Of a DNA stretch of 64,000 nt, positions 11,964-63,277 are shown piece by piece; position 1 is the first letter of the stretch; each line of letters opens with the position of its first letter. A program made the translations under genes and the position numbers. The notes under the pieces are model-generated. The model worked only from the letters and a program-made list of their open reading frames with translations. It was not told the DNA's origin and did not search any database. Source of the stretch: Macrolepiota albuminosa (taxonomy: Eukaryota > Basidiomycota > Agaricomycetes > Agaricales > Agaricaceae); the NCBI GenBank assembly GCA_027475525.1, contig JAMWFC010000071.1:1-64000 (forward strand), written 5' to 3'.

Positions 11964-12118
11964 GTAAGCGCCTCCACGGTTACGAGAGATAACTACCAAG
12001 GGTCCTAGATAGCGCGGGCGCATTTTCTTATTGTATGAGGTGTAAGCGCCTCCACGGTTACGAGAGATAACTACCAAGGTCCTAGATAGCGCGGGCGCAT
12101 TTTCTTATTGTATGAGGT
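11964..12118. repeat. 78/77-bp tandem duplication
   Basis: Two copies starting at 11964 and 12042, differing by one G in a run. See the finding on k=77 overlaps. Confidence 0.9.
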
Positions 12119-12161
12119 CTCGATTTTGGAGTTGCGCATAAGCACTAGCGCACCCCTCGGG

Positions 12162-12315
12162 AAGTTGTAATCTTTGATAGTGGCGCTATGCTCGGTTTCG
12201 AATCGTAGGGCTGCTTGGCGACGTGCGCTAAAGACTACAAGTTGTAATCTTTGATAGTGGCGCTATGCTCGGTTTCGAATCGTAGGGCTGCTTGGCGACG
12301 TGCGCTAAAGACTAC
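12162..12315. repeat. 77-bp exact tandem duplication
   Basis: Copies start at 12162 and 12239; identical, in Gypsy integrase. Confidence 0.95.
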
Positions 12316-12330
12316 CTCGTGAAGTCGCTC

Positions 12331-12484
12331 CAAATCTTCTTTCCTTCGTTGGAGGTCAATAGCTCGTCTGGCGATAAGGTCGGTAGTCGCTAAGATACTG
12401 TTGGGTGCAAATCTTCTTTCCTTCGTTGGAGGTCAATAGCTCGTCTGGCGATAAGGTCGGTAGTCGCTAAGATACTGTTGGGTG
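12331..12484. repeat. 77-bp exact tandem duplication
   Basis: Copies start at 12331 and 12408; in Gypsy integrase. Confidence 0.95.
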
Positions 12485-12582
12485 CTGGTTGAAGATAGGT
12501 CGCTTCTATGATGTCGGCAGGGAGTAACGGATGGGTGCCAGTAGCCGCGTAATAGGGAGAACAACCCATGCGCTTACGAATA

Positions 12583-12736
12583 GTAACTCTTTCCGACCAA
12601 AATACTGAATATGTCGCTTCACTCCAACGAGACTCGTCGCCATCGACTGCCTTGAAAAGGTAACTCTTTCCGACCAAAATACTGAATATGTCGCTTCACT
12701 CCAACGAGACTCGTCGCCATCAACTGCCTTGAAAGC
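12583..12736. repeat. 77-bp tandem duplication
   Basis: Copies start at 12583 and 12660, with a G/A difference (CATCGACT versus CATCAACT) and a mismatch at the end. Confidence 0.9.
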
Positions 12737-13212
12737 GCTTGCCGAACGTCAAAGTGTGGTCTTTCTACCAGGCCATTGGCGCGCTTGTTGTAGCCAGATA
12801 CCGAATGTGGTGAATATTGTATTTCTTGGCGAGGTAAGTTAGCGCTTTGATGATGGGCGCACCGTTATCCGTGACGATTTCTCTTAGCGCTCCCCAACGG
12901 CAAATGACGTCCTCAAATAGCCACTTGGCGACCGCGTCGGTATTTTCTCTTTGGAGCATTCGAAATTCAGGCCAGTGGATTAGCGAACAACGACCTTGAA
13001 TGATGTACTTGTAGCGACCAGATTTGGGCATGTGCATGGTGTCGACGTAGATTTTGCTGAAGAGGGGAGCTGGCGTGGCAACGGTTGGCGGTGTGAGCAC
13101 TTGGCGTGTCTGTTGAATTTGGCAGAGGTGGCAAGTCCTGATGTACCATGCGATGTCGGCGCTAGCGTGTGGCCACCAAAAGCGTTCTAGCAGAGAAGCT
13201 CGGGTAGCGTAC

Positions 13213-13366
13213 AGACCTCTATGTCCTAGCTCGTCATGCATAGCGCGCAAGACTCGTAAGCGACCTTCTGGCTTGATGATCAGCTTGTGAGACCTCTATG
13301 TCCTAGCTCGTCATGCATAGCGCGCAAGACTCGTAAGCGACCTTCTGGCTTGATGATCAGCTTGTG
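13213..13366. repeat. 77-bp exact tandem duplication
   Basis: Copies start at 13213 and 13290; separates the RT-RNase H frame from the integrase frame. Confidence 0.95.
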
Positions 13367-15894: not shown

Positions 15895-17496
15895 CGGTGT
15901 GGAGGCTCGTTGGCGTGCTGGTCGGTAAACTCCGGGGGCTTAGCGCGGGCGCCTTTTCGTTGTCCCCTAGGGAACGTTGGCACCGTTCGTCGGATTCCGG
16001 AATTGGGGTCGCTAATTGTGAGGGTCGTTTCCTCGTCGGTAACTGTCTTGACGACTGATCGCGCCAAGACGTCGAAGGGTCTGCCGAGTAGTAAGTCGTA
16101 TGCTGGGGAGCGTAAAATGTGGATCTGGAGGTAAAAGGTAATGTCGCCAAGGGTGCACGGCACATTCTTGGCGAGGCCGAGGGATCTGTCTACCGTACCG
16201 TTAGCGCTCTGCATGTTTAGTATCACCGTAGGGTCGTAAATGAGGCCTAGATCATTAGCGACTTCTGCTGCCATAGAAATAATCTGAGACCCGCTATCCA
16301 CGATTGCCTCTACTTCGTGCTTGTTGTCTACGGTTAGCGCTACCGAGCGGATAGCGTGCGATTCTTGGGCGACGGTAAGGATTGCTGGGTCTTCGCCGTG
16401 GTCGACTGACCTAAGGTAGGTCTCCACTGGGTCCACAGAGGTGGCGTTAGCGATGGGGTCGGCAAGAGTGTCTTCAGTGTCGGGAGGGTCGACGGTAACA
16501 GAGAAACCAGGAAGCGCGTCGTCGAGTTCATCAACCTCGGCAACGGCTGTCGCCAAGGGTCGTCGGGGAGTGACTGCCGTTTTCACCTGATTGCGAACGT
16601 CGGGAGCAATACTGCAAAGTTCTTCTACTGACAAGGTGACGGCGGTTTTCATGATACGGTTAAAAACGTGGTTAGATTTCTCTATGTCGAAAATTGGCGC
16701 AGTAGGTCGGTAACCACCCTCAGGACGTTTCTCGGGAGCGGCAAAGTTTCGTTGTGCTGGTGCGTGATAACGGTCGGGAATCCCTGAGTAGGGATGGAGA
16801 GGCGGCAAAGGCGGTTCGGGAAGTTTCGTTGTGCTGGTGCGTGATAACGGTCGGGAATCCCTGAGTAGGGATGGAGAGGCGGCAAAGGCGGTTCGGGGCG
16901 GTAGCGGTCGATGATGGTTCTGGAGCGGTAGCAGGGGCAGCGGCAGGCGGTGCGGTAGGAGCAGGTGTCGGTAACTTGCTAGCGGGAGGCATCGACTTGT
17001 ATCCTTTAAGAGGTTGTTTGGGCTGCTTAACTTCAACCCCATCAAAAACCTGGTTCTTTAGCGAATCCAACTCCTGTTGGAGCTTGGCGATACGCTCTTC
17101 CCGCGAGAAAGTAGGGTGGTCGCCAACGCTGTCGAAATGTAGGACCTCGTGAATCATCTGCTGTTGGGTCGCCTGTTCGGGGTCGGGGTTGGCGTTGCCA
17201 GATAGCGTGCCGGTAACGATTTGTCCTGGATTGCGCCTATGCCACTCATCAACTCGCTCCTGGAAGGACTTCTTGTCTGGGTAGTTGGGGATGGTGGCGC
17301 CAGTGGTGAGGACTATCTTGCCGTCGATAGCCCTTCGAATTCTACCTTGCCGAATGTAATTCTCGAGGGTAGCGCATCGTCCTCTAGTCATAGTATGGCC
17401 AATTTCCCCACAGAAGTGGCAAGGGCCAGGTGCGGGTACGTTAGCGGGTCGGTTAGCTGTGAGGTTGGTGGTGATCATGGTTTCGATACGTGTCAT
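15867..17496 (-). CDS. Gypsy zinc knuckle and aspartic protease (two broken frames)
   Basis: The frame 16720-17496 carries a CCHC zinc knuckle (CHFCGEIGHTMTRGRC), followed by GRIRRAIDGKIVL and a Pro/Ala-rich linker. The frame 15867-17045 carries the retropepsin: VDSGSQIISM with the catalytic Asp, then AYDLLLGRPFDVL as the second conserved block. The two overlap because the 77-bp copies at 16744 and 16821 put a shift between knuckle and protease. The protease would cleave the Gag-Pol polyprotein during particle maturation. Confidence 0.8.
16744..16897. repeat. 77-bp tandem duplication
   Basis: Copies start at 16744 and 16821, between zinc knuckle and protease. Confidence 0.95.
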
Positions 17497-17734: not shown

Positions 17735-17888
17735 TTACCGGCTTCAAAGACGTCGGCAACGTTATAGGGCTCGTCTGGATGATGAGCCTGATGAACTATC
17801 TCTAGGCGACGTTACCGGCTTCAAAGACGTCGGCAACGTTATAGGGCTCGTCTGGATGATGAGCCTGATGAACTATCTCTAGGCGACG
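17735..17888. repeat. 77-bp tandem duplication
   Basis: Copies start at 17735 and 17812, in gag. Confidence 0.95.
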
Positions 17889-18608
17889 GCAATACGAGTC
17901 CACAGTGAAGTCGGGATGCCCTGCTGAAATAGGCGACGCTCCTCGTTAATATAGAGCTTGCCGTTCTGCAGCGAGTCCACAGTGAAGTCGGGATGCCCTG
18001 CTGAAATAGGCGACGCTCCTCGTTAATATAGAGCTTGCCGTTCTGCAGAGCCACCTAGCGATTTTCTGGAACTCGCGGTAATACGTAGAGAATGCGCCAA
18101 GCGACGATGTGCCACTGTCGAAAGATTCCTGTACTAGTTTCTGTAACTCGTTTACCGTGTATCGGGTAGCCTCCTCGGCGCCAGGGTACAGCTGGATAAC
18201 TGCCGTCTTCCAGTCCTCATACGAAGCGCCTTGAGCTGGAGCTGGCGGTGCGGCAGGGACAAAGGCGGCAAACTCGGTAAGACCTGTCCACGTTTCTGCC
18301 GTGTCATACGATACGTATCTTGCCGCGTACTCCTTCATCTGCGTGTGGTCGGTAATGTTACAATCTCTGAATAGATACTCCAACTCTTTGAAATACTGGG
18401 AGAGCTCCCGTGGCTTGGTCTCGTCCCATTTCGGTGCCGAGAAGTGGTTGCGTGGCGGCATGCGCTGAACTTGTTGTTCCATAGCGACTGTGTTGGCGAG
18501 TTCGGTTAGCGGTAGTGGGGAAGGAGTTCTGGAGATTGGCGACGGGGTAAGAGAAATGAGTTGTGAAAGAGGCGTTAGCGGAGTGATGGGAGTAACTGAT
18601 TGCGGCAA
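17839..18608 (-). CDS. gag: Gypsy gag, N-terminal capsid part
   Basis: Open frame of 220 aa from ATG at 18608: a Ser/Thr/Pro-rich head, then PKWDETKPRELSQYFKELE and QMKEYAARYVSY, the usual start of Ty3 capsid, and a helix (TVNELQKLVQESFDSG). Capsid forms the virus-like particle. The frame is disrupted after AFSTYYREFQKIARWL by the duplications at 17895 and 17735; the continuing capsid segment (YINEERRLFQQGIPTSLW) is found in the next frames. Confidence 0.75.
17895..18048. repeat. 77-bp tandem duplication
   Basis: Copies start at 17895 and 17972, in gag. Confidence 0.95.
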
Positions 18609-18859: not shown

Positions 18860-18862
18860 ATT

Positions 18863-20184: not shown

Positions 20185-20338
20185 GCTTCAGAGGCCCCAG
20201 AAGCGTCCAACCTGGCATAGGGAATCCCTAGACTTGTTCTCTTTGGATCTCCCTCTGCCAGGCTTCAGAGGCCCCAGAAGCGTCCAACCTGGCATAGGGA
20301 ATCCCTAGACTTGTTCTCTTTGGATCTCCCTCTGCCAG
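20185..20338. repeat. 77-bp exact tandem duplication
   Basis: Copies start at 20185 and 20262, each beginning GCTTCAGAGGCCCCAG; outside any element frame. A shorter CTTTGGATCTCCCTCTGCCA recurs at about 20381-20400. Confidence 0.95.
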
Positions 20339-28245: not shown

Positions 28246-29346
28246 ATGTCCTCTGTCCCTCTTCCTTCTCGCGAACCAAACCCTACAAATGCCGCCCCTG
28301 TATGGCCCATAACTTCGTCACGTTCGGGCGTCACTGTTCCTTTACCAGCCAACTGTGCCAGGCCTAACCGCCAGGATGGCATCTGCTGCAAAGAACTAAA
28401 AGCAGAGGAGCGAACACTCATTGACCCCGACATAGTGCGCGACGTGTGAGGCCTTTTCAACCGTTTTTTTCTTGAATCTTTTTGTCCTCATACAAGCCTA
28501 GTGTCATTGGTCTTTCCGACGGCCTCACAGTACCCTTCGCCCTAACAGCAGGCCTATCTTCCCTTGGCGAATCAAGACTCGTAGTCCTAGGAGGTGTCGC
28601 GGAACTCATTGCGGGTGCAATATCAATGGGCATCGGCGGTTTCCTCGCGTCTCAGTCTGAGCGAGATCATTACAGGTATCTCCGACATCAGACCGCGGCG
28701 AGGGTCGTTCGGAGTTGCGATGGAGAGATGGAACGCGAGGTTTCTGAGGTGCTTGCGCCCGTTGGTGTCGATGAGAAGACGTGCAGGTCCGTTGCGCAGT
28801 CTCTCAGGGAGGTCGAGATGCAGGTGCATGCACACGAGGGCGGACATCCAACGGACGAGGAGATGGCGTTGCGCTGGAGCGGCCAGGTCGGGCTTACGGC
28901 ATTTTTACTCAAGTTCGGTCTCGGATTAGGTGAGTCCGGGTCTCGTGCTTTCATGTCCTACGTATCTTCGGTGTTCTATATCCGTTGGCTTTGTTGCTCC
29001 TATTTTTGTAATGATGAACACCTGGCTGATCTTCGTATCTTAATTTTCAGAGGAAGTTCCGACTCGCAGATTGTACATCTCGGCTTTTACCATTGGAATG
29101 GGATACCTTATCGGTGGCCTTATTCCCCTCTTGCCGTACTTCTTCATACCGCGAGCACACGTTGCATTAATATACTCATGCATTGTGACCGGTGTTGTTC
29201 TGCTTGTTTTCGGAGCGGTCAAATCCCATGTGACAGGTGCAGGTATGGGAGCTAAGGGATATGTATACGGAGCGTTTAGCACGCTGCTTGTAGGAGGAGT
29301 TGCAGCGGGTGCAGCGTTTGGGATTGTCAAAGCGTTGGAAACGTGA
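28246..29346 (+). CDS. CCC1/VIT1-family vacuolar iron/manganese transporter
   Basis: Members move Fe2+/Mn2+ from cytosol into the vacuole in exchange for protons and so protect against metal excess. Three exons: 28246-28445, 28502-28929, 29051-29346, giving 307 aa. The first junction restores VVIGLSDGLTVPFALTAGLS, the family's first transmembrane signature; the second gives LGLEEVPTRRLYISAF. Next come GGVAELIAGAISMGIGGFLA (helix 2, with the conserved Glu and Met residues) and a hydrophilic metal-binding loop rich in Glu and His (EMEREVSEVLAP, HAHEGGHPTDEEM). Three C-terminal helices are visible: IGMGYLIGGLIPLLPYFF, ALIYSCIVTGVVLLVFG, FSTLLVGGVAAGAAFGIVKA. Length and layout match the family. 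Direction and metal are inferred from homologues. Confidence 0.93.
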
Positions 29347-38333: not shown

Positions 38334-38487
38334 TTTTTTTATAGAGGGATTCGTAACGTGTGAGGGATGTCGGCCCATGACCGAGCGAGAGGTACCAAAA
38401 GATCGGTAAGTTTTTTTATAGAGGGATTCGTAACGTGTGAGGGATGTCGGCCCATGACCGAGCGAGAGGTACCAAAAGATCGGTAAG
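38334..38487. repeat. 77-bp exact tandem duplication
   Basis: Copies start at 38334 and 38411, both TTTTTTTATAGAGGGATTCG. Confidence 0.95.
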
Positions 38488-38534
38488 TGAAATTGCTGTC
38501 ACGCCGGGGTCAGTTGCCGACTTGCCGAATCGTC
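38430..38534 (+). repeat. dispersed repeat downstream of terpene synthase
   Basis: Direct-orientation copy of 35865-35987. Part of it is present twice because of the 77-bp duplication. Confidence 0.75.
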
Positions 38535-40302: not shown

Positions 40303-41772
40303 GTTTTGGTGACGGTAACAGCTGGTCTTCTACGCCCACGGACAGTTGATTTGTTCTCAATTCGATTTGTATACAATCATTTTCCAGACATTCTTTCGCT
40401 GCGGTCAACTGTACACGAAAAGACTACAATTGTACATTAGACCCAACACATACTCTAGTTTGTACCACTATAGACTCCGGCAAATTTGCTTGACATACTT
40501 GTCTGTTTCCGCAGCACAGCCAAATTTGAAGCATCCTTTGATATCTTGATGCTTTCACGGCGTACTCCCCGTGGCATGCCGAAGTACAGGTCCTCAAACA
40601 GTTCGGAAGCATTATATATGCGCGTCGTTCAGGTGATCTGTAACAGGCCGTGCCTTACTGGGGCTGAACCCATCGCCATCTGGCAATAATCATTGTACTC
40701 TCAGGTCCTACTACCTAGAAGTATCATTATTCGACTTCGTCACGTGATGACAAGATTTTGTGTATTTTCATTTGTTTTACACAGCGCTTGGTGAACAACC
40801 GTTTCTAAAGTAGCGGTATATTCTGCTATGTACAAGTGAGAATGTCAGCTAGGTGCCGCGTGCTCCGACCTTCTGCAAAGTTCTGCAAAAGCGGAGATTA
40901 ACCGCGATTCGGGTGGGTGGGTAGGTGAACATATATCTGAAGACTGTTTTACCGATTGTCCGCTTCAGAATCTCTTCCCTTCACGGAGGCCACTATGGCA
41001 CTCTAAGACGTCTTCCGGTCTTTTGTTGTTTTTCTTCTTCTTTTATCTTAACTCCGCGCTTGGGCTGCCTCGTGGGTGGAGCGGAAGGGAAAAATAGTGT
41101 TCTTTTCTGCAGGCAGACCCGATGCTAGGACAGGGGAAAAGGAGTTCCCGTGGACAACACAGCCACCCTCATTCAGTCCCCTCTGATCATGTGCACGTGA
41201 TTTACCAGAGTCACGAAAAACTCTTCAGCCTCGACCTGCCGCCACAGTCTATCTGCCATATGCAACAATGCGGTCGATTCAAATGAACTCAAATCACTCT
41301 TGAACACAAATAAGGATCCTTCATGGTGAAACCTCTGTATTTCTGGCATTCTATGTTGTCCCGAATTTCCATCCGATCTTGTTCTACATGTGAAGCGTTT
41401 CCGACCATGAGCTGGTACTTGCGCTGGGTCAGAAAGAAAACGACATGGACGTGGTACATTCACAGGGTGAAATAACGAGGATTGAAGAAAACTTGTGGTT
41501 CGAAAACAGTCCTCTCGCGTCTGACGTGCCAGCGTAGGACAGCCACGTGCTGGAGGAATTTTGTTGAGTCACCTATCAGTGCCGCTTCCCTCTGTCCAAG
41601 AAATGGCTGATGTTAACGTTGTTCATGCTTATCAATGTTTAAATCCACGTCATCCGTGCAATCGTTTAAATCGTTTAACGATCGAAAACATGTCTTGGGT
41701 GGGATCACGTGACCGCGTCCTGATAAAATGCCCTGCTCAGTGGCGCTTCTTCCTTCATACTCGACCACCATC
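40303..41772. other. gene-poor stretch
   Basis: Several 60-97 aa frames on both strands overlap each other and none shows a domain. A 96-aa minus frame (41173-41463, MNVPRPCRFLSDPAQVPAH) cannot be assigned. The final part is the promoter region of the next gene. Confidence 0.4.
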
Positions 41773-44336
41773 ATGGCGATTTCTAATTGCACCCTCGCGC
41801 TCTTAGCTAGAGCATACGAGCTTAGCGTTCTTCTTATTTCAACTCTGGAAAACATGTATCAAGTCCCTCAGCTAGATCCAGTCCAGTTTGCTCCTCTTTT
41901 ACTTCCTCCTCCTCCCTCGCCTTCACCAACTCGCACCATAACGTCCCTCCAATCCACGCCTACTATCCCTTCACTGCCGCCAACACCTACATTATCTACC
42001 CGCCCTCTCCCCGCAGGCCCTCTCGTGTGTGGCCTCATGGTCATGCTCGCAGCTGTGGCCAGTGGACTTGTCATAGGCAGCCTGTTAGTTTGGCATCGGA
42101 CAACCCATCGAGCTCAAAAGCATCCCGCTCAGTGTAACTCCCTCAGAACTCGCTCTCCTGCGACTTCTAAAGAGATTTCGTCCCCGACAAACCACCTTCC
42201 CTTTTCCCAATGGCCTGATGTACCTCACGTCCCCGTTGAACTCTTCTCTCTCCGAAGGATCTTTTTAACCGCTCCCTCAGCTCTCTTGGACCCTCTTGGA
42301 AATGACCGTATCGTCATGTTCTTAGCTGTGGTCACTCGCTTCGTTATAGACAAGCTTTTAGAAATCCGCGAAAAGTACATGGAATTCACAACATTCGCCA
42401 AGCGCCTTCTGTCGATTGCTCGCTTGAAATCATCGTCGTCTTTTGCATCGGCTCTCACACATCTCCATCAGCTCTTCAAGTGGTGTACTCTACCTATCAA
42501 ACTCCAGTTTCCTTTCGCTCTTCCAGGCCCTCTTCGATATGACTGTATGGTCAAATCCGTAGTCGTGGCCACCAACCTTGCTTGCGACAAGATATTGGAA
42601 TTTGGGCGAAAGGCGGTGCACCTTAAGTTTGTAACCGCCAAGCACCTTCTGACTGCAGGATCACTCGCTATTACTTCTTGTGTCGTAACCACCCTCCCAA
42701 AACTCCTTTCCTCTCGCCAAATGATGACAGGCTTTCGGTTCATCAGACGGTCTATCCTCATCCCGCTTGCAAAACTTTATTCATTCCAGGATCTTTCCCG
42801 ACAACTGGGTGTACCTAACGCTTCATTTATGGTTGTGCTTAGGCGCATCCCATACGGGATGGAAATTGTAATCGCCGTCCATTGCGGCGTTGGTCTAAGC
42901 GCTTTTTGTGGGTATTATATCCTAAAAAGACTTGACGACTACATCGATGAACCCCAGTACGACTTCGGAGACTACGATGATCCCTGGGTTCAGCACCGTT
43001 TCGACATTCCTGATGGCCCTGACAACGATGACTTTGAAGAAGAAGACGATCAGCTTTTCCAGTCCGTCGACGATTTACCAGCTGGACTCTCTCACAAGTT
43101 TGGAAACGCCGAGCACCTTTGGATTGCAGGATTACTCGCTATTACTTGTGTCGTAACCTGCGGGCTTTGGTATTCTATTCCCTTTCTGGACATCATTGGC
43201 TCCTTCGCCGCGCCTCGCATCCGAACCATCCTCGCAAAACTCCTTTCCACTCGCCACATGATGACCGGCTTCCGGTTCATCAGACGTTCTATCCTCATCC
43301 CTCTTGCAAATCTTTATTCATTACAGCATCTTTCCCGATACATGGGTTTACCTAACGCTTCATTTATGGTTGTGCTTAGGAGCATCTCAAACTGGAAGGA
43401 AATTGTAATCGGCATTCATTGCGGCGTTGGTCTAAGCGCTTTTTGTGGGTATTATGCCATAAAAAGAGGACTTGACTACTACATCGATGAAACCCCCCAG
43501 TACGACTTCGGATACTACAATGATCCCTGGGTTCAGTACCGTTTCGAAATTCCTGATGACCCTGACAACGATGACTTCGAAGAAGATGACGATGAGCTTT
43601 TCCAGTCCGTTGACGGGGTTCAGTACCGTTTCGAAATTCCTGATGACCTTGACAACGATGACTTCGAAGAAGATGACGATGAGCTTTTCCAGTCCGTTGA
43701 CGATATTTTATCTGGACTCCCTCGCAATGAAGCGGACGAAGAAGAGTTTCAGAGAGGAGTCGAAACGATCTTGAACAGTATCGAAAACGTTATCGCGGAA
43801 CGTGATGATGCTCGCAGTCGTGCCAGCAACCTCAACCAGACACTCCGTTACTTGGCAGCACGGTGTACCGACCTTGAATCGATGATACGTACCCTTTCTG
43901 ACGTTGAAGACGTTGGAGAGCCGCTTGATTGTACGTTGGCATTCACATCTAAGATGGAGGCTCTTTGCTCATATTTACATAGATGATCAAGCTATTCAAG
44001 AAGGTGCCTTCGACGAGTGGTCTGCTGCAGTTGTATCTGGTGCAGCTGCATTCGCTCCTCCTCCTCGCTGGGAAGCGCCACCAGACTGTGAGTGTTTTTG
44101 TAACTCCTCGCATTTTCACTTCTCAAATCGACTTGTTTTTAGATGCTGAAGTGGGTGGACCGCACCCCACCAACGTAGTAGAGCCATCCAATCAGCCCAT
44201 TGGTGAGTTTTCTCGATCCTTCCTTTTCTTCTTTCGGGACTTATGTGCTTCACGCAGCCGTTGAGAATGATCATATAGCACCTCAGGACAACGGTCCCCC
44301 TCAACCTCAAGTCGTGCGCGTAGATTGTGAGTGATC
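41773..44336 (+). CDS. hypothetical membrane protein with internal duplications
   Basis: A long first exon (ATG 41773; an in-frame ATG at 41728 would add 15 residues) ends at 43930 and is followed by short exons 43983-44087, 44143-44202 and 44258 to about 44336, with regular GTGAGT/GTACGT donors. About 800 aa. The N-terminal third holds hydrophobic segments (CGLMVMLAAVASGLVIGSLL) in three loosely repeated units of type GPL..D.MV...VVAT....DKLLE. The middle holds two long copies (about 42640-43080 and 43085-43620) sharing MMTGFRFIRRSILIPLA, PNASFMVVLR and CGVGLSAFCGYY, each ending in an acidic DNDDFEE block. The acidic block is duplicated again as an 87-bp in-frame repeat at 43530 and 43617. 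A coiled coil (ENVIAERDDARSRASNLNQ) follows. No known family recognised. Confidence 0.7.
43530..43703 (+). repeat. 87-bp in-frame tandem repeat
   Basis: Copies start at 43530 and 43617, differ by a C/T, and are 29 codons long. Not 77 bp and in frame, so biological rather than an assembly overlap. Confidence 0.85.
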
Positions 44337-47573: not shown

Positions 47574-50500
47574 TTATCTTCCCTTCCCCTTCTTCCTCTT
47601 CCTCTTTCCTCCCGACTGGGCCTTCGCTGCGTCCCCCTCAATTGCCAGGTCTCCGTATGTCCTCTCGAATCGCCTCGTACTGTTGATGTATTTGAACAGG
47701 GCTTTTGTCGCTTCCGCATCGCTCAGGGCTCCCGCGTCCAGCTCTACTGTTCTGGCTAACTCGCGTCGCTGCTCCTCGTATGCGCTGCAGTGAAGCAGGT
47801 AGTGTTCGACGGTTTCTTCAGCATGTCGGCATGCGTTGCACAGCGGCGACTCGGCTCTCTTGAACCTGTGCAGGTATTGGTTTAACGGGCAGTGCCCTGT
47901 CCGTAGTTGCGTTAGGATGGATGCGTGTCTCCGCGGTAAGCTTGCCAGCGTTTGGAGGATCTTGCTCATCTTGGGTGCGTCTGGGTCGATTGCCTGGAGC
48001 CTCGCAAACCTGGGTGACTTGCGGATGTGGTCTTCTGCGTCTTTCCTCCACTGCTTCTTGTGCGTCGCCAACACCGCTGCTTTGGAGGCCTTAAGGGTTT
48101 TCCGGAGGAAAGGCAACCCCCTCGTTTCCGTCTCCTCGCCCGCCGCCGCCCGTTTTGCTTCTCTGTCTGCGCGCTCATTGCCTGGTATTCCCACATGCCC
48201 CGGTGTCCAGTACACCGTGATGTCTAAGCTCGAGTCGATTTCCTTGACCTTCTGGATCCCTTCCAATACTTTGTCCACCAGATACCTCGCCGTCCCACGC
48301 CCTGGCGCCCCCAACCCTTTCATTCCCGCCTGATTATCAGTCCCCACCGTCACCGTCTTCACTCGTCTCCTGCCTCTGTTCCCTCCCCTGATCTCCCTCC
48401 TCAGCAGCTCGAACCCCAACACCTGTCCCACGCATTCGCCCTCGTATACCGTGTGCTTCTCCTCGGCCCCTAAGTACTTCCTCATAACTCTCACTCTCTC
48501 CATTCCCCTATATAGCACCGCTGCTGCGCCGACCCCCCCACTGTGGCCCGACCCGTCCGTGTAGATCCGTATGTCCGCCTCGGTGTTTCTCTCCCTCTCC
48601 TGCGCTTCCTCCTTTGACTCACCGCTGATGACGTCCACCGGGCACTTCCAGTCCGGTGGCTTCCGCACAATGTCTATTGTCTCCACTTGCTTCGGATGCT
48701 CACCCAAGGCCTTCATAATGTAATGTAGCGGTGCTCTGTGTCGCTTGACGTACCTGGCTGCTCTCTCGGCTGTCTTCTGGAGCGGGTGCGTTGCTGGCAG
48801 TGTAGCGATCCGAGCCGCTGCCGTCACGCAGATCCTCCGTATCCTTACGGTCATTGGTTCCAGCCCTGCGTGTGCTTCTAGCAAGTCGTTTGGTGTTGTC
48901 CTCAGAGCACCTGTGATCTGGAGGGCCCCCATCCTCTGCACCCGGCATAACTTGTCCACTATACCCTTCGATCCCCTCGACGTCTCCCCCCCTCCTACCG
49001 CACTCGGCACGCACCACACCTCTGCTGCGTAGACCATGTTCGGCACCACTACTGCTTCATATAGTCTCCTTGCCAGCGTTCCTTTCACTCCTCCGTTCGT
49101 CTTCGACAGGCGTCTCATCTGCATCGCTGCTGCTGTCCCTTTCCCATGTGCATATGCAGCGTGTTCCTTGAAGCGCAGCTCCTGGTCCAGTATCACCCCC
49201 AGGAACTTGTGGGACGCCTCCACCTTGATTGCTGTTCCCCCTATCGTGATTGTCGGCCTCCTCGCTGGCTTCGTCTTTCTCCCCTCTCCCCCCCTTTCCC
49301 TCTCCCTCCTCCTGGTGAACCCCACTCCTACAAACTTCTTTATCTCATAAATCAAGTGGTGTTCATCTGCCCATCTGCTTGCTCCCCTCTTCCTTTCCAT
49401 CATGCTCTCCACCTTCCTTGCTGCCTCCTCTAGGTTTCTTCCCTCCGCTGCAATGTATGCGTCATCCGCAAATGACCCCGCGATCTCTCCTTCGTGCTCG
49501 TCTGCTCCTTCTATTTGGCCCGCGTTATAGAAGTTGTAGCACAACCCCGATGTGTTGCACCCCTGATCTAGTCCGCTGCCCACCGGAATCAGCTCCGACT
49601 TGTAGTCGTCGAATGCAATCACCGTTTTTCTCCCTTCCAGCTTCCTCTCAATCCATCCCACTACCTCCTCCGGCACTCCCCTCTTTCTCATATCCCTCGC
49701 CAGTACCCTCGGCACCATGTTCAGGAACGCCCCTTTCACATCCATGAAGACCGCCACCACCTCTCGTCCCTTCCGCCACGCGTCCTTGATGAAGGACGTC
49801 AGTACGTGTATTGAGTCAGTTGTCGATCTTCCTGGCCTCCCACCATATTGGTGCTTCGGTAGTAAGTTCGCCTTTTCTGCGTGGTATGCAAGTTTAGTTT
49901 TGACACATGATGAGAGAACTTTAGCTACGGTGTCCAGCAAGGCGATCGGCCGGTACGAGTTGGGGTTACTGTAATCGTCGCGGCCTGGCTTTCTTAGCAC
50001 TACCGTTTTGAATATCTTCCATCGCTCTGGGTATACCTTGTGTTCAAAGGTTGCACGGAAGATCGGTCCGAGGTATGGGACTAGCGTGTACTTAGCTTTC
50101 TTCAATACAATGTTCGGTATGCCGCTCAGCCCTGGCGCCTTGTGTGGCTTGAGCTTATCAATCGCCGCGTATATCTCCCGATTTGTGATGCCCAACCATT
50201 CGAATGCCTGCTCCGTGCTTTCATCAGCCTCCCCCCCCTGCCATTCTCCTGGGTCGCTGTAAAAGAAGGCTTTGTGGAACAGCCTCGCCTTCCCCTCGTT
50301 ATCGTCCACCTCCCGTTGTCTACCCCCCACCTCCTCCTTCAGCGCTGGTGTTCTAGCCTTCCCTCCGTCCCCTGGTGCTGCAGTCACAAAGGCCTTTGCG
50401 TCCCAAATTGTCCTGGCATCGACCGTCTCTAGCCATTCCTCCCAATGTTTGCGCTTTGCGTCCTTGATTGCCTGTCCGTACGTGTTGCGCGCCCTCCGGT

Positions 50501-51776
50501 AGGCTTCATGCGCTGGGTGGCCCTCTATGTCCACGACCTCATACGATGCTCTGCCGCATGCTCTTGCCTTCTTCCTTAGCTCTGTCAACTGCTGCGTCCA
50601 CCACCTCTTCATCCCCATAGACTCCCTCCTCATCGGCACCTTCTCCTCCACTGTCGCCTTCAGAGCTTCCATGACCTGGTCTAGCCTCACTTCCACCTCT
50701 CCCCTCCTCTCAATCCTTCCCCTCCCCACTCCCTCCAATTTTGATCCCAGCACCTGTTCAAACTCGTCCCAGTCTACCTTCCGGAAGTCTCTGCTCTTTT
50801 CAGACTTGAACCTCTCCACTGCTACCTCGCACGTTGTGACAATCGGGAAGTGATCAGCCTTCGGTAGTTGCTCGCAGTACAGCACCTCACATCTCGTGAT
50901 TCTGTTCTGAAAAGAGCCTGTAACAAAAACATTGTCTGGTCTCGTTAGATTTTTTGTGCTCTTTGCCCTCAGCGTAGGCACGTGGGGTCTCAGTGCCATA
51001 CTCATCCTGTGCCGTGCCGTCATAGCTAGCAGCTCTTCTGCCGCATCCACGTTCCTCCTCGTGAATAGGTGCGAGTTTCGCGGGTTGTCCCACATTGGGT
51101 GATGCCTGTTGAAGTCTCCAACCCATATGTCTGCCGTGTTTCTACCTCCCACTTGCCCATTTCCCGCTCCTCGTAGGTAGAAGTCCAGAGCCTGTAAGCT
51201 TCTGGAATGCTCACAGTCATTGTATATGTTGAATATACGCACCGTCCTTCCCCGCGTCTCGATGCTTATCCCCACCACGTCAGCACACTCGATGTCTAGC
51301 CTCTTCCACTTGTCGGTTGCGATCCTCTTGTTTACCAGCATGATCGCCCTCGTCCTGCTCGCGTCCCTCTTGTCATGTCGCTTTGGGTATACCGGTCGCC
51401 AGATCTGCGTGGCTCTCGATTTTTTGTTGAAATCGAAGTAAGGCTCCTGCAGGCATATAATATCAGTTGTCGCATCCATTGAGTTCAGTAACGCATGCTG
51501 CGCTATTAGGGATTTGTCCACATTCTGCTGCCATATGGTTAGTCTTTCACCTCCACCTCCCTCTAAATGTCCGCCTTCGCTATTCCCCCTTCCATCATCT
51601 CCTTCTACGGCGTCACTCATTGTGTCGATCTCGGTGATAACTGCCGTGCCTGCGCTGCTAGGGTTTCTAACGATGCCATGAAGTCGCTGTATTGTTTGTC
51701 GTTCCAGTTTCCTTCCTGTTGTGCTGGTTCCTCCTCCGTCATTCCTGCCACCTGGCTGCATGGTTCGCTGCTCCAC
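47574..51776 (-). CDS. LINE ORF2: endonuclease, reverse transcriptase, RNase H
   Basis: 1400-aa open frame. APE-type endonuclease: LTIWQQNVDKSLIAQHALL, DIICLQEPYFDF (catalytic Glu), IWVGDFNRHHPMWDN and KADHFPIVT (DH). Reverse transcriptase: KPHKAPGLSGIPNIVLKKA, SYRPIALLDTVAKVLSSCV, HQYGGRPGRSTTDSIHVL, FMDVKGAFLNM and the catalytic SFADDAYIAAEG. RNase H: IRIYTDGSGHSGGVGAA (first Asp), YEGECVGQVLGFELL (Glu), VGTDNQAGMKGL and YWTPGHVGIPGNERADREAK. The C-terminus has a Cys/His motif (CNACRHAEETVEHYLLHC). The endonuclease nicks target DNA and RT copies the RNA there. The start overlaps ORF1 by 160 nt in another frame, so the first residues before the endonuclease may not be translated or may need reinitiation. 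Confidence 0.95.
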   Translation of the reverse strand: MEQRTMQPGGRNDGGGTSTTGRKLERQTIQRLHGIVRNPSSAGTAVITEIDTMSDAVEGDDGRGNSEGGHLEGGGGERLTIWQQNVDKSLIAQHALLNSMDATTDIICLQEPYFDFNKKSRATQIWRPVYPKRHDKRDASRTRAIMLVNKRIATDKWKRLDIECADVVGISIETRGRTVRIFNIYNDCEHSRSLQALDFYLRGAGNGQVGGRNTADIWVGDFNRHHPMWDNPRNSHLFTRRNVDAAEELLAMTARHRMSMALRPHVPTLRAKSTKNLTRPDNVFVTGSFQNRITRCEVLYCEQLPKADHFPIVTTCEVAVERFKSEKSRDFRKVDWDEFEQVLGSKLEGVGRGRIERRGEVEVRLDQVMEALKATVEEKVPMRRESMGMKRWWTQQLTELRKKARACGRASYEVVDIEGHPAHEAYRRARNTYGQAIKDAKRKHWEEWLETVDARTIWDAKAFVTAAPGDGGKARTPALKEEVGGRQREVDDNEGKARLFHKAFFYSDPGEWQGGEADESTEQAFEWLGITNREIYAAIDKLKPHKAPGLSGIPNIVLKKAKYTLVPYLGPIFRATFEHKVYPERWKIFKTVVLRKPGRDDYSNPNSYRPIALLDTVAKVLSSCVKTKLAYHAEKANLLPKHQYGGRPGRSTTDSIHVLTSFIKDAWRKGREVVAVFMDVKGAFLNMVPRVLARDMRKRGVPEEVVGWIERKLEGRKTVIAFDDYKSELIPVGSGLDQGCNTSGLCYNFYNAGQIEGADEHEGEIAGSFADDAYIAAEGRNLEEAARKVESMMERKRGASRWADEHHLIYEIKKFVGVGFTRRRERERGGEGRKTKPARRPTITIGGTAIKVEASHKFLGVILDQELRFKEHAAYAHGKGTAAAMQMRRLSKTNGGVKGTLARRLYEAVVVPNMVYAAEVWCVPSAVGGGETSRGSKGIVDKLCRVQRMGALQITGALRTTPNDLLEAHAGLEPMTVRIRRICVTAAARIATLPATHPLQKTAERAARYVKRHRAPLHYIMKALGEHPKQVETIDIVRKPPDWKCPVDVISGESKEEAQERERNTEADIRIYTDGSGHSGGVGAAAVLYRGMERVRVMRKYLGAEEKHTVYEGECVGQVLGFELLRREIRGGNRGRRRVKTVTVGTDNQAGMKGLGAPGRGTARYLVDKVLEGIQKVKEIDSSLDITVYWTPGHVGIPGNERADREAKRAAAGEETETRGLPFLRKTLKASKAAVLATHKKQWRKDAEDHIRKSPRFARLQAIDPDAPKMSKILQTLASLPRRHASILTQLRTGHCPLNQYLHRFKRAESPLCNACRHAEETVEHYLLHCSAYEEQRRELARTVELDAGALSDAEATKALFKYINSTRRFERTYGDLAIEGDAAKAQSGGKRKRKKGKGR

Positions 51777-53428
51777 CTGTATTCGTCCAGGGTCGTCTGC
51801 GTCCCGCCCGTTGGCCTGTCTCGTTTCTCACCCCCTCCTTCGGCGTTGACATCCTCCGTCTGCCCAGTTCCCAGTGGCCAGCCTCCTCCCTGCCCTGTCC
51901 GGCCCCCAGCGAGTCTGCCTTGTCCACTGCCCTGTACTGCTGCTGCCATGGTGTTTTTGCCTCCTGTAGTCAGTAGGTCGTCATCTTTCCTCATCCATGT
52001 CCACTGCTGATCCATGGGGTAGAACCTATATTTCATCTCCGGCGCTCTCTCTGTCAGTCTGTTCTTAGCCTCTATGAATGCTGGACAAGTCCTCGCTACT
52101 GCCGGATGGTCATGCCTGAGGCCTCTCGCTTTGCAATTGATGCAACAGAAGGCTCTCGGATCGTTCTCCTTGCAATCTCTCGTTCTGTGTGCTTTGGCGC
52201 ACATGCTGCAGGTGTCATTCTCCTGCTTGCATTCGTTAGCAATGTGACCCTTGCCAAACCTTTGGCACTTCAGACAGCGCTTGGGCTCGTAGTCCAGCTT
52301 CCTCGCATTCACCCTTTTGCCTTCAATGATCAGTCCTTGTCTTATGATCGCGTTTGCGCCCCTGTCTGTGGCGCACAACAGTATCAGGTGTGCTACCTTC
52401 TGGTTTTCGTGCCTCATCCGCGGTGCCCTTGCCCACTTCGCCGATACCAGTTCCCCTGGGTGCAGCCCGTTCCTGCCTTCAATCATCTCTAGGCCCTCCG
52501 TCGGGTCGTCGCCTAGGCCCACTGGTACGAATTCCACAAATATGTTGTAGACTCTGTCGGCTACCTTGGCTCCCACTCCAAACTTGTCGAGGAAGCTCGT
52601 CCTCACGTCTGGCATGGCCAGCCATTCCGCCACATCTGTGGAGTTCAGTTCATACATCACGCCCCCGTTCTTCAGCTTCCTCGCCGATATGAACTTTACC
52701 TCTGGGCTGTCGAGGCCCTGAATGCCCATCAACTCTTTCGCCATCCTCGCCTTCTCCACCAGTTCTCTCTCTGTCAACCCCTTCCACCCTTCTCCTCCTT
52801 CCCCGTTGTCGATAATCATCTGCCTCGACCTGTCCTTCGCCCTTTTCACGATGTCCTCCCGCTCGGCTCTGCGGGCTGCCTGTGCGTAGTCCATCTTCGT
52901 GGTCGGTGGCTCCTCTGCTCCCCTTACGGTCCCTTGGATACCCGCTTGCCTGAGCTTCGCCTCTACTACCTGCCCTTCCTCTACACTCTCCACCAGTTCC
53001 CTAGTCTGATCTGCCATCCCTTTCACCGTCTTCACTGTTGCTTCAGCCATACTTTCCAACACCTCCCTGTACTCCTCCATCGCCCGTCCCACTGTCTCCA
53101 GTACCATCCTCTCTGCTTCTCCGGCTCTCACCTCCTCCATTCCTATCGCGATCGCCCTCAGTCCTTCCTTTACCTCTTGCATTACGTCCTTCCGAGCCGT
53201 CAGCAAGAGTAGTGCAGCCTTGAGTACGTCGGCGTCCACGGGGTCCTCGGCCTCGGACAAGGCTCCTGCGTCTAGGAGCCACTCCCTGGCGTCCTCCGCT
53301 GTTTGGACTTTCGGTACGTATTCCTTGTTTCCGCTGGCTCTCGTGGTCACACCTGGTGCTGTGTTTGCCTGTTTGCGCCCTGTCTGACCGACGTTCTTCG
53401 CTGCGATGCCTCCGCTATTGGTTGACAT
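51617..53428 (-). CDS. LINE ORF1: nucleic-acid-binding CCHC protein
   Basis: 603-aa open frame from ATG at 53428. The N-terminal half is helical and acidic (ESMAEATVKTVKGMADQT), possibly multimerising. A central domain follows (LVEKARMAKELMGIQGLD, WARAPRMRHENQKVAHLI), RRM-like by position. Three zinc knuckles end it: CLKCQRFGKGHIANEC, CSMCAKAHRTRDC and CCINCKARGLRHDHPAVARTC. A Gly/Gln-rich tail and a short Trp-rich segment close the protein. ORF1p binds the element RNA to form the retrotransposition particle. 3' end overlaps ORF2. Confidence 0.93.
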   Translation of the reverse strand: MSTNSGGIAAKNVGQTGRKQANTAPGVTTRASGNKEYVPKVQTAEDAREWLLDAGALSEAEDPVDADVLKAALLLLTARKDVMQEVKEGLRAIAIGMEEVRAGEAERMVLETVGRAMEEYREVLESMAEATVKTVKGMADQTRELVESVEEGQVVEAKLRQAGIQGTVRGAEEPPTTKMDYAQAARRAEREDIVKRAKDRSRQMIIDNGEGGEGWKGLTERELVEKARMAKELMGIQGLDSPEVKFISARKLKNGGVMYELNSTDVAEWLAMPDVRTSFLDKFGVGAKVADRVYNIFVEFVPVGLGDDPTEGLEMIEGRNGLHPGELVSAKWARAPRMRHENQKVAHLILLCATDRGANAIIRQGLIIEGKRVNARKLDYEPKRCLKCQRFGKGHIANECKQENDTCSMCAKAHRTRDCKENDPRAFCCINCKARGLRHDHPAVARTCPAFIEAKNRLTERAPEMKYRFYPMDQQWTWMRKDDDLLTTGGKNTMAAAVQGSGQGRLAGGRTGQGGGWPLGTGQTEDVNAEGGGEKRDRPTGGTQTTLDEYRWSSEPCSQVAGMTEEEPAQQEGNWNDKQYSDFMASLETLAAQARQLSPRSTQ

Positions 53429-53590
53429 CCTGAGTTCGACTTTGTATGGTAGGTATGAGATGTAAGCAGGTGTTCTAGCAATGATATTTTACTTCTAATC
53501 TATCGCCCTCGTCTGTCCTGTGGTCTGTCGAGCCTATAAGACCCGAGTTCCCACGGTGGTCAGATGGTGGTTTAAGATCAAAAGCGGTCC

Positions 53591-53744
53591 CCCACGAGTA
53601 GCCGGTAAAACGAACCATTCAAATTGTACGCGAATCCGTTACACGAAAGGCTTTTCTAGGCATCGAGCCCACGAGTAGCCGGTAAAACGAACCATTCAAA
53701 TTGTACGCGAATCCGTTACACGAAAGGCTTTTCTAGGCATCGAG
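53591..53744. repeat. 77-bp exact tandem duplication over the LINE 5' flank
   Basis: Copies start at 53591 and 53668, both CCCACGAGTAGCCGG; the target-site copy is therefore present twice on this side. Confidence 0.95.
53593..53606. repeat. LINE target-site duplication, right copy
   Basis: CACGAGTAGCCGGT, matching 47326-47339. Confidence 0.85.
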
Positions 53745-54110
53745 CCTATGGTAAGAGTGGATCGAATCAACTACTGATACGAGCGCAGGATAGATTGTAT
53801 GAGACCGCGCTCGTATAGGTTATGTGAGATTTACAGAGCCGCAAATAGGGATATATCATGATAATATAGACACTGACCCATGCCTTGATCACCAACATCG
53901 TGTCAATATTCAGTCGAGACTGGGAAAATTCAGTCTAAAATCCGAGACTGATTATAATTAATTAGTTCCGCCGTGTTCCGTGAGCCTTCTAGATCGGAAC
54001 TCTGACTTGAGTGCCCCATGGTTGGAAAAATCACTCAGTTGCTGGGTGGCTGATATCTCATTGGATAATGGACAAGGTTGGGAAAGCTGACTATCCAACA
54101 ATATATATTG
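53745..54110. other. no gene recognised
   Basis: Spacer upstream of the hairpin block. Nothing supported. Confidence 0.4.
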
Positions 54111-54172: not shown

Positions 54173-54185
54173 CCCCCCCCAACTA

Positions 54186-54985
54186 AGCCTCCACCCTAAC
54201 CTCACTTCGTTCGGTTAGGGCTCCAAGTATGTATAGAGAACTCAGTGCTTAATCCCAGCCTCAACCTCACTTCGTTCGGTTAAGGCCTCGGTATTTCACA
54301 ACTCAATGCTTAATCCCAGCCTCAACCTCACTTCGTTCGGTTAAGGCCTCGGTATTTCACAACTCAATGCTTAATCCCAGCCTCAACCTCACTTCGTTCG
54401 GTTAAGGCCTCGGTATTTCACAACTCAATGCTTAATCCCAGCCTCAACCTCACTTCGTTCGGTTAAGGCCTCGGTATTTCACAACTCAATGCTTAATCCC
54501 AGCCTCAACCTCACTTCGTTCGGTTAAGGCCTCGGTATTTCACAACTCAATGCTTAATCCCAGCCTCAACCTCACTTCGTTCGGTTAAGGCCTCGGTATT
54601 TCACAACTCAATGCTTAATCCCAGCCTCAACCTCACTTCGTTCGGTTAAGGCCTCGGTATTTCACAACTCAATGCTTAATCCCAGCCTCAACCTCACTTC
54701 GTTCGGTTAAGGCCTCGGTATTTCACAACTCAATGCTTAATCCCAGCCTCAACCTCACTTCGTTCGGTTAAGGCCTCGGTATTTCACAACTCAATGCTTA
54801 ATCCCAGCCTCAACCTCACTTCGTTCGGTTAAGGCCTCGGTATTTCACAACTCAATGCTTAATCCCAGCCTCAACCTCACTTCGTTCGGTTAAGGCCTCG
54901 GTCGGTTAAGGCCTCGGTATTTCACAACTCAATGCTTAATCCCAGCCTCAACCTCACTTCGTTCGGTTAAGGCCTCGGTTTTCCA
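54186..54985. repeat. 61-bp satellite array
   Basis: About 12 near-identical 61-bp units containing CTCACTTCGTTCGGTTAAGG and ending in TTTCACAACTCAATGCTTAAT. Each unit contains an AACCTCACTTCGTTCGGTT-type inverted core. The first and last units are diverged, as in a tandem array growing from the middle. At 54903 the register jumps by 16 bp, explained by a 77-bp duplication (copies at 54826 and 54903). Confidence 0.95.
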
Positions 54986-55034
54986 CCACTCAGTGCTCAA
55001 TCCTAGTTTGCCTCAACTCTCAGAGCATTATTGT

Positions 55035-60600: not shown

Positions 60601-60936
60601 GCCGTGACATGGAAATCAGTCTTATAGGAAATAATTTAATTCTTACGATCCGCGTCCGGCCTACGGCCTTAGAGATTTCGAATTACTACAAAGTATTTGC
60701 GTCCCGAGACAAAAGATCCTCGGACACGGACTTGAACATATGTCTACGGTTGCGGTATTCTGAACCAGTGGGTAGCAGATGTCTCCATATCTATGTTGCT
60801 TTTGATGACAGATATAATTATTCCCATCATGGTTCTGTTGAGCGGAATCTATATATACCTATGGTTCGTTGCGCTGGGCTCTCTCTACTGTGACACTCGG
60901 TATTGCCCATTATCTGGGCCTGTTTACGCCATCAGA
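57691..60936. other. long gene-poor stretch
   Basis: Over 3.2 kb with many 60-146 aa frames on both strands that overlap and show no domain. A 26-bp word GGCAGTGGAGCGCAACGTG occurs at 60181 and 60383, and GATCGGAATACTGA recurs near 60440-60500. I cannot support a gene; a non-coding transcript or strongly intron-rich gene cannot be excluded. Confidence 0.4.
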
Positions 60937-63277
60937 ATGCTCGTCAGTCGATTGACTGCTGCAATTATCAGTATCATTCTCGTTGTCCTCGGGCTGTATG
61001 CACGGCGCAGATCTTATCGCGACCGTGTCTTACCACCGGGCCCGACTGGAATTCCGCTTTTTGGGAACCTCCTACAAGTACCCAGAAGGGTACGCTCTCT
61101 GTTCTCACTTAAGCTGAATTACAGAATCAATGGGACACCACAGCATCTTGCAACCTATTTCAGGACCCTCCTCGAAAAATATGGGGGTTTGGTGTCATTG
61201 AACTTGGCAGGCTTTGTAAGATTTCGCAATTTGTGTAAACTCACCATTGTCCTCATCGAACTCTCTCGGAGACCGTTATTTTGATTGGTAATATGGATGT
61301 GGCAAAGACTCTGCTTGAAAAGCACTCGGCCAAGAATTCATCGCGACCAAGTCTTCACTACGTCGTCAGTCCCTGTTCGTTCCATTGCCACCTAGTTCCT
61401 GATGAATGGTGATTCAGCGCAATCACGTTGATCCTCTGAATGATATCTGGGCTTTTAGTGACGAGTACGCTATAGGCCGCAAACTTACAAACCACATCAT
61501 GTCTGTCGTCAAAACTGGGAAGACAGAATTGCTTCAACGATTCGAAGCCATACTAAATGTGCAGCATCTGCTCGACGACGGCGGGAAAAACTGGCATCAC
61601 CACATTGAAAGGTAGCTGTTTGTTCCTGTGGGAGGATTTGAAAACCTCATCAAACTTCCCCAGAGCTATATCAAGTACCGTACTTACAGCAGCATTTGGA
61701 TTTCACTGTCCAACAGGGCACGAACCTGAACTTAGGCAGATTCTTTTCGTGAGTACAATCTAGGGTTACCTGTAGACCGTCGCAATCATCACTTGCCAGT
61801 AGACCATTGATGAGCTAGCCGATCTCGCATCTCCTACTGCCAGTATCACTAACTTCTTCCCCTTCCTGGACTTGTTACCTGGTCCGATGCCATGGCGGAA
61901 TCGTGCACGGTCATATCAGGAACGGATGGATGCAATCTACGAAAAACTCATTGATCATGCTATGAGGTGCAAAGCTGCTGGCATGGATACGCAAGTCCGT
62001 TTTCTCTTGCTCTGGACAATTTGGCAAATTTACCTTAACAGATGGGCCTGCACCTTTGTAAATGACGACAAACCTGAAGAGGATCAGCGTCGTATGATGA
62101 GACAATTTTCCGTGGTACGTAATTTATCGAAATATAGCCAAACTTCGTAGCTAACATAAATACAGGCCGCCATTGAAACGGTAGATACACTGTAGACATT
62201 CTTTGTTGCTCTTCTTTCTTATTCGTCTACAGTCCATAACAGCCCTGGAAACCTTTGTCCTCGCTTGCATCCGTTATCCTGATTGGATTGTCACAGCACA
62301 AAGAGAGATCGACAGTGTCGTAGGCCTGATCGCTTGCCATCTTTCAAGGATCGACCCTTCCTTCCCTATATAGAAGCTATCGTTCGGGGTGCGTCCTTGG
62401 GCCTGATCGCTTGCCATCTTTCAAGGATCGACCCTTCCTTCCCTATATAGAAGCTATCGTTCGGGGTGCGTCCTTGGAATTTAACCACTTTCTTTTCTAT
62501 CTTGGGAAACATTTTACATTGGAATATTTGCAGAGACTCTCCGCTGGCGCCCTACAGGCATGTTCATACGTCACGCAAATGCATTTTGAGGCTGACTTGT
62601 AAGCATAGTTCGGGCTGGCGTCCCCCATTTGTCAACTGCCGAGGACACGATTGAGCATAATGGCCAAACGTATTTTATCCCCAAGGGTAGCCTCATATTT
62701 GCAGTTACATGGTAAGAGAACACTCGTAAGTGATTACAAATGAGCTAACCTCCTCAGGGCAATTGAACATGACCGGTCAAAGTTCAAGGATGAGGATAGA
62801 TTCATGCCTGAACGGTATCTCGACTCTGAAGGCCAGCTGAAGCCAGATTACGAGACGAGTGCCTTTGGTTTTGGTCGACGTGGCTAGTATCCTCATCTCA
62901 ATTTGATTCAGTCTAGCGTCTGACTAGCCTTATAGTTTGTCCGGGTATTCCGTTTGCCGAGCGATCTCTGTGGATAAATATCGCCACAATGCTATGGACT
63001 TTCAATATCCGTGCTACCAATAAAGTTGATCCTGATACTGGTCTGCCATTTGAATATGACGACAGTGATGCGTCATTCTGTGGTCTAGATGTGAGTGGTC
63101 CATTTCCTTGCTGCTTGATATTCATAATTGATTGTTGTGCTGGTTACATAGCTTGGTAACCCGCCGTTCAAATTCCCAGCCATCTTCGAACCTCGCTCCC
63201 CGCAGCGAGTGGCGGTGGCCAGCAGGGAGTGGGCAGAGTTGGAGAAGAATTTAGGCGTGTTGATGCCGGGTGCATGA
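60937..63277 (+). CDS. cytochrome P450 (basidiomycete family), 13 exons, with a frameshift
   Basis: A microsomal haem monooxygenase, probably in secondary or xenobiotic metabolism. Exons: 60937-61215, 61272-61364, 61418-61611, 61664-61748, 61803-61990, 62042-62114, 62166-62180, 62233-62465, 62534-62557, 62609-62711, 62758-62882, 62936-63090, 63152-63277; about 538 aa. N-terminal membrane anchor (AAIISIILVVLGLYARR), hinge LPPGPTGIPLFGN, GRKLTNHIM, I-helix IETSITALETF, ExxR as ETLRW, PERF-like FMPERYLD, and haem loop FGFGRRVCPG. Exons 5, 9 and 11 end at GC-AG donors (GCAAGT, GCATGT, GCTAGT); exon 7 is only 15 nt. Exon 8 contains the 77-bp duplication 62323/62400 and, even after discounting it, is one base short in GTCGTAGGCCTGAT, so it is a pseudogene or an assembly error at that junction. 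Exon assignment is by frame and family motif only. Confidence 0.85.
62323..62476. repeat. 77-bp exact tandem duplication inside the P450
   Basis: Copies start at 62323 and 62400; interrupts exon 8. Confidence 0.95.

What the first reader, a model, noticed from the sequence alone, without database searches (positions are those of the whole stretch)
11964..62476. Fourteen tandem duplications, 13 with a period of exactly 77 bp: unmerged k=77 assembly overlaps
Copy starts are 12162/12239, 12331/12408, 12583/12660, 13213/13290, 16744/16821, 17435/17512, 17735/17812, 17895/17972, 20185/20262, 38334/38411, 53591/53668, 54826/54903 and 62323/62400, plus 11964/12042 at 78/77 bp. They lie in unrelated sequence (Gypsy, satellite, terpene synthase flank, LINE flank, P450). 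Constant length irrespective of content is not a biological signature but is what contig ends sharing a k-1 or k overlap would leave. In the satellite the 77-bp copy shifts the 61-bp register by 16. Each copy adds 2 mod 3, so every one causes a frameshift; most Gypsy breaks and one in the P450 follow from this.
Basis: partly seen in the sequence, partly recalled or inferred. Interest (0 to 1): 0.8.

Follow-up and report, generated by a model that had tools for sequence, protein, structure and literature searches.

The report
Genome-wide 77-base assembly stutters

Summary
The repeats are in the file: 12 exact tandem pairs of period 77, one with three mismatches (12583), one at 78/77 (11964). 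They are genome-wide: 20 stretches of 10 kb from four other contigs hold 22 period-77 events; among runs of 30 bases or more no other period occurs more than twice. Run lengths of 55 pooled exact events (35/15/4/1 for 77/78/79/80+) fit an exact 77-mer with chance flank matches. Refinement: the 77-mer often ends where the sequence parts from its relatives. At 17 of 28 testable duplications at least 75% of relatives differ at its edge, against 46 of 725 control positions. In 7 of the 17 a base is missing there, which cleanly overlapping contig ends would not give; but six of those seven lie in two very similar element copies. Eleven of 28 show no edge difference. A Nup133-like gene with no second DNA copy has five such pairs in or beside it. 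The word was probably pasted at forks or uncorrected errors of a k=77 graph. Reads were not available. Low interest.

The parts
11964..12118 (.). tandem pair, copies 78 and 77 bp, one indel between the copies
   Evidence: copy 2 lacks a base that copy 1 and seven relatives carry (copy 1 has G there, the relatives A)
   Evidence: 77-mer found exactly at two other places and with one mismatch at nine more; no edge difference against 6 held relatives
12331..12485 (.). exact tandem pair, run 78, same repeat
   Evidence: no edge difference against 7 held relatives
12583..12736 (.). tandem pair of 77 bp with 3 mismatches
   Evidence: at the internal mismatch copy 1 agrees with 7 of 8 relative rows shown, copy 2 with one; three of three relatives listed have one extra base at the right edge
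13213..13366 (.). exact tandem pair of 77 bp
   Evidence: 6 of 6 single-copy relatives differ at the base right after the 77-mer
16744..16897 (.). exact tandem pair of 77 bp in a retroelement polyprotein region
   Evidence: 12 exact occurrences listed in the genome, the two copies here included; one base missing at the right edge against 4 of 5 relatives, shared by the relative L038
17435..17589 (.). exact tandem pair, run 78
   Evidence: one base missing at the right edge against 5 of 5 relatives
17735..17888 (.). exact tandem pair of 77 bp
   Evidence: one base missing at the right edge against 6 of 6 relatives
17895..18048 (.). exact tandem pair of 77 bp
   Evidence: one base missing at the right edge against 5 of 5 relatives, placed there within an A run
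20185..20338 (.). exact tandem pair of 77 bp in a dispersed repeat
   Evidence: 8 of 8 relatives differ at the base after the 77-mer
38334..38488 (.). exact tandem pair, run 78
   Evidence: the one other genomic match with up to 3 mismatches differs only in the first base of the 77-mer, in a T run
53591..53746 (.). exact tandem pair, run 79, LINE flank
   Evidence: no further exact occurrence in the genome (no mismatch allowed)
54246..54902 (.). 61-bp satellite array, exact units
54825..54979 (.). 77-bp tandem pair (run 78) at the exit of the 61-bp satellite; shifts its register by 16
   Evidence: within the array the 77-mer is followed by TATT, at the exit by TTTT
62323..62477 (.). exact tandem pair, run 78, beside a cytochrome P450 profile match
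   Evidence: one base missing at the left edge against 3 of 3 relatives; P450 profile matches 62744-62887, the only one of the seven pieces from 61406 to 63159 to do so

Best explanation
The duplications are assembly artefacts, not DNA of the organism. A step that used a de Bruijn graph (or k-mer table) with word length 77 wrote a 77-mer twice where it should have overlapped it. The word is often the last one before the sequence leaves the path of its relatives: at a variant between repeat copies, at the exit of a satellite, or at a missing base. Shown here: constant length 77, a peak at 77 across the sampled genome, and a difference from relatives exactly at the edge of the 77-mer in 17 of 28 cases. 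Inferred: that the step is a graph step. Least certain: whether it was contig joining without trimming, or a failed patch or polish of a draft; the missing bases favour the second. Eleven of the 28 show no edge difference and are covered only by the constant length.
For: Length 77 in unrelated sequence. 22 events of period 77 in 200 kb from four other contigs; other periods at most 2 at runs of 30 or more. Run lengths 35/15/4/1 against 30.9/15.5/5.8/2.8 expected for an exact 77-mer with random flanks, p 0.52, n = 55. The seven other loci that match the whole duplicated query at 12583 each carry a 77-bp pair there, six at shifted positions and one (L002) at the same position as the window (strands allowed for); the other 32 of the 40 scored matches cover only one copy (capped list). 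Edge difference in 17 of 28 duplications against 46 of 725 controls, nominal p 6e-13; one-base losses to substitutions 7:10 against 2:38, nominal p 0.002. Taking only the 20 duplications whose run is exactly 77, where no slack was allowed, it is 11 of 20. A fork at the exit of the satellite. Five pairs in or beside a Nup133-like gene that has no second DNA copy; at one of them a protein profile fits better if one base is missing there (38.5 against 28.5 bits).
Against: No reads and no second assembly could be consulted. 11 of 28 testable duplications show no edge difference against the relatives held, among them 12162 and 12331; for 53591 no other exact copy exists, so no fork can be shown. 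In one search duplications with runs of 78-79 (8 of 28) were allowed 1-2 bases of slack, controls none. Neighbouring controls and duplications share relatives, so the p values are nominal. Six of the seven one-base losses lie in two closely similar element copies (window 16.7-18.0 kb and L038, 99.7% alike over one 295-base stretch), so they are not independent. A version with nearby controls showed no excess of losses (5 del, 10 sub against 8 del, 18 sub, p 1.0); I lay this to controls that straddle the same junctions, and changed the control distance and the placing of indels in homopolymers. At 16744 the single-copy relative L038 shares the missing base, so that loss may be a true variant. 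Four events have copies that are not identical (12583, 11964, L025 9101, L029 5357), which needs later editing or a copy taken from elsewhere. The window's pair at 12583 and that of L002 are at the same place of the element, as an inherited duplication would be.
Confidence: 0.95

Rival explanations
1. Plain unmerged contig overlaps: graph segments that share a 77-base end were laid end to end without trimming.
For: Exact length 77, identical copies in most events, forks at many edges. Graph contigs of an assembler such as SPAdes at k=77 overlap by 77 bases (recalled, not from a call).
Against: 7 of 28 lack a base at the edge, and one junction near the Nup133-like gene also seems to by protein profile. 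A variant inside a repeat has a fork on either side, so naive joining should give pairs of duplications one base apart; among the gaps between neighbouring duplications listed the smallest is 6.
Confidence: 0.4
2. Failed k-mer patch or polish: a draft was corrected with a k=77 graph, and where the path from the last trusted 77-mer failed, that 77-mer was written again in front of the uncorrected base.
For: Differences and one-base losses sit exactly at the edge of the 77-mer, on one side; at 62323 the lost base is in a G run, against 3 of 3 relatives.
Against: No named program is shown to do this; the 10 edge substitutions may be true variants between repeat copies; 11 of 28 have no edge difference; six of the seven losses are in two similar copies. 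After this recount I lowered it from 0.55 to 0.5 and raised plain overlap from 0.35 to 0.4.
Confidence: 0.5
3. Real tandem duplications made by the cell (slippage, template switching, end joining).
For: Tandem duplications of tens of bases do occur in genomes (general knowledge); the pair at 12583 has a counterpart at the same place in L002.
Against: One length only, in unrelated sequence; shifted places in six of seven copies of one element; five in or beside one conserved gene. No cellular process with a 77-base ruler is known to me.
Confidence: 0.02
4. Target-site duplications of a transposon.
For: Several lie in retroelement-like sequence.
Against: The two copies abut with nothing between them; 77 bases is far longer than usual target-site duplications (recalled).
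Confidence: 0.005

Closest known systems
Homotype false duplications of genome assemblies (Ko et al. 2022, PMC9516828; passages seen)
   Same: Sequence written twice in an assembly though present once; laid there to accumulated read errors and under-collapsed sequence; can be mistaken for gene gains.
   Different: The passages name gaps between the copies on a scaffold as a mark and mention no fixed length; here the length is fixed at 77 and the copies abut without gap.
k-mer end overlaps of de Bruijn graph contigs (SPAdes and similar; recalled)
   Same: Neighbouring graph segments share exactly one k-mer; 77 is one of the usual k values of SPAdes (recalled).
   Different: A pure overlap keeps every base; here one base is missing at 7 of 28 edges.
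Tandem repeats such as the 61-bp satellite at 54246-54902
   Same: Head-to-tail copies.
   Different: The satellite has many units of one sequence; the 77-bp pairs have two copies each and unrelated sequences.

Membership tests
k=77 graph artefact | one constant length whatever the sequence | tested here: met
   22 events of period 77 in the 200 kb sample, no other period more than twice at runs of 30 or more
k=77 graph artefact | copies identical, with only chance extension beyond 77 | tested here: met
   run lengths fit chance, p 0.52, 55 events; four further events have one or a few differences
k=77 graph artefact | the 77-mer ends at a fork between this sequence and its relatives | tested here: inconclusive
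   strong excess, 17 of 28 against 46 of 725 controls, but 11 of 28 show none; only some of each repeat's copies were held
k=77 graph artefact | reads carry one copy | not testable with these tools
   no reads held
plain unmerged contig overlap | no base lost at the junction | tested here: not met
   one base missing against relatives at 7 of 28 edges, six of them in two similar copies; one more junction suggested by a protein profile
plain unmerged contig overlap | the two copies abut without N | tested here: met
   no N in the window
homotype false duplication (Ko et al. 2022) | low read depth over the copies | not testable with these tools
   no reads held
target-site duplication | an insert between the two copies | tested here: not met
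   copies are adjacent
slippage-type tandem duplication | broad spread of lengths | tested here: not met
   single peak at 77

The most novel reading that the evidence does not exclude
The cell itself makes tandem duplications of a fixed 77 bases next to variant or missing bases, by some measuring repair process. Without reads nothing here excludes it outright.
Probability: 0.01. Interest if true: 0.9.

Novelty: not a real feature. Interest (0 to 1): 0.12.

Why it matters
If the 200 kb sample is typical (it is very uneven: 12 of 20 stretches have none, one has nine), there are about 110 such errors per Mb, roughly 11,000 in 100 Mb and some 0.85 Mb of false sequence; this is an extrapolation. 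Each one in a coding stretch shifts the frame, so genes and transposons of this assembly would look more broken than they are. A scan for exact tandem repeats of one single period is a quick test for this fault in any assembly.

Tried and rejected
Real biology was considered and rejected: target-site duplication (no insert), slippage (one length only), inherited duplication of the element (six of seven copies have it at shifted places; L002 has it at the same place as the window).

The edge test went through four versions. One search counted loci that cover the window itself as relatives and so missed deletions: 8 of 30. One search left those out: 18 of 28 with a majority fork against 34 of 220 nearby controls (all relatives: 11 of 28 against 11 of 220); 15 of 28 against 29 of 479 nearby controls, without excess of deletions. 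One search, the version quoted, used controls 250-1500 bases from any junction and placed deletions in homopolymers at the edge. Alignments suggest further losses at L006 568, L038 1347 and window 12583; these are not in the count of seven. Only duplications with a run of 77 or more and at least two single-copy relatives with at most 8 mismatches were counted (28 of the 55).

I tried to find the organism and its assembly method in print: one protein search gave nothing, and paper searches for an assembly of this size or for this artefact gave no match that I recognised (listings and abstract starts only, apart from passages of PMC9516828). So I cannot name the organism or the program. A search of solved structures with the nucleoporin read-through gave none; the piece L021:2364-3023 matched Nup133 chains weakly (E 0.001 and 0.002).

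Full report
Observation. The window is bases 1-64000 of contig 57 (77,822 bases) of a 100.1 Mb genome in 129 contigs. Twelve are exact over 77 to 79 bases. The one at 12583 has 74 of 77 matches, and the one at 11964 has copies of 78 and 77 bases. Apart from these there are only the 61-bp satellite with its multiples and one run of period 87.

Across the genome. I took 20 stretches of 10 kb at even steps from four large contigs. They hold 22 events of period 77: 21 exact and one with a single mismatch. Other periods give at most two runs of 30 or more. Eight of the 20 stretches have events, twelve have none, and one (L021) has nine, so the fault is clustered. The seven other loci that match the whole duplicated query at 12583 each carry a 77-bp pair there; allowing for strand, six are shifted by 6 to 31 bases and one (L002) is at the window's own position. 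These loci were returned because they match both copies; 32 of the 40 scored matches cover one copy only.

Length. Pooled over the window, the positional stretches and the relatives, 55 duplications with a run of at least 77 show 35, 15, 4 and 1 runs of 77, 78, 79 and 80 or more. For an exact 77-mer with unrelated flanks 30.9, 15.5, 5.8 and 2.8 are expected (p 0.52).

What lies at the edges. For 28 duplications at least two single-copy relatives are held. At 17 of them at least 75% of relatives differ from the locus at the edge of the 77-mer: 10 by substitution, 7 by a base that the locus lacks. Of 725 control positions at 250-1500 bases from any junction in the same records, 46 do so (38 substitutions, 2 deletions, 6 others); nominal p 6e-13 for the difference and 0.002 for the excess of one-base losses. 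Runs of 78-79 were given 1-2 bases of slack; among the 20 with a run of exactly 77 it is 11. Six of the seven losses lie in two closely similar element copies, the window at 16.7-18.0 kb and L038; the seventh is 62323. In the satellite the 77-mer is followed by TATT within the array and by TTTT where the array ends. At 38334 the one other genomic match differs in the first base of the word alone. At 12162 and 12331 no edge difference was seen against the relatives held, though 12162 has two exact copies elsewhere whose flanks I did not see. For 53591 no other exact copy exists.

Genes. L021 carries pairs at 2243, 3183, 4270, 4606 and 5518, within or beside a gene on the minus strand whose pieces 2364-3023 and 4952-5449 match Nucleoporin_C and the Nup133 N terminal profile; the first piece matches Nup133 chains weakly. 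That these pieces are one gene spanning all five pairs is my inference. The DNA of 1900-6400 has no second copy in the genome. The N-terminal profile finds one other gene, on contig 85, with a better score and an identity that I did not test. At 5518 a read-through that allows one lost base at the edge scores 38.5 bits and spans the junction, against 28.5 for the part from the junction on; the upstream piece read straight on into the first copy has no match to the profile. At 4270 the frames suggest a lost base and at 3183 none, by eye only. In the window the pair at 62323 lies upstream of a P450 profile match, and one base is missing there against 3 of 3 relatives; the frame break is read by eye.

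Explanation. One length in all contexts points to a word length of a program. In more than half of the testable cases the 77-mer ends where the sequence leaves the path of its relatives, as a node of a k=77 graph would. Lost bases at some edges are not expected if two contigs merely overlap; they fit better if the word was written again where a draft base was wrong or rare and the path could not be closed. I give 0.5 to the failed patch and 0.4 to plain overlap; both are artefacts. Which program did it is not known.

Limits. No reads, no second assembly, no name of the organism (introns, P450 and retroelements by eye suggest a fungus; not tested). The relatives are those that capped searches returned, not all copies. 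The density for the whole genome is an extrapolation from 200 kb chosen at even steps on four of 129 contigs.

Noticed in passing
L034:2274-2373: A run of exactly 100 N in a repeat, either a scaffold gap or a withheld stretch.
   Followed up: no
47574-53488: A LINE-like element with two long open frames on the minus strand (1417 and 623 aa; the first with endonuclease, reverse transcriptase and RNase H profiles), without a 77-bp pair inside.
   Followed up: no
28476-29255: Open frame with a VIT family profile.
   Followed up: no
43563-43702: Exact 53-base run of period 87 inside the 757-aa open frame 41713-43986, which has no Pfam match and no homologue at E 0.001 in one search.
   Followed up: partly
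L018:8952: Exact 152-base run of period 172 in contig 114, the longest tandem run of another period in the 200 kb sample.
   Followed up: no
L029:5357-8340: The tail of contig 57 has three more period-77 pairs (5357 with a mismatch near its end, 7553, 8187), two of them over retroelement-like frames by eye.
   Followed up: partly
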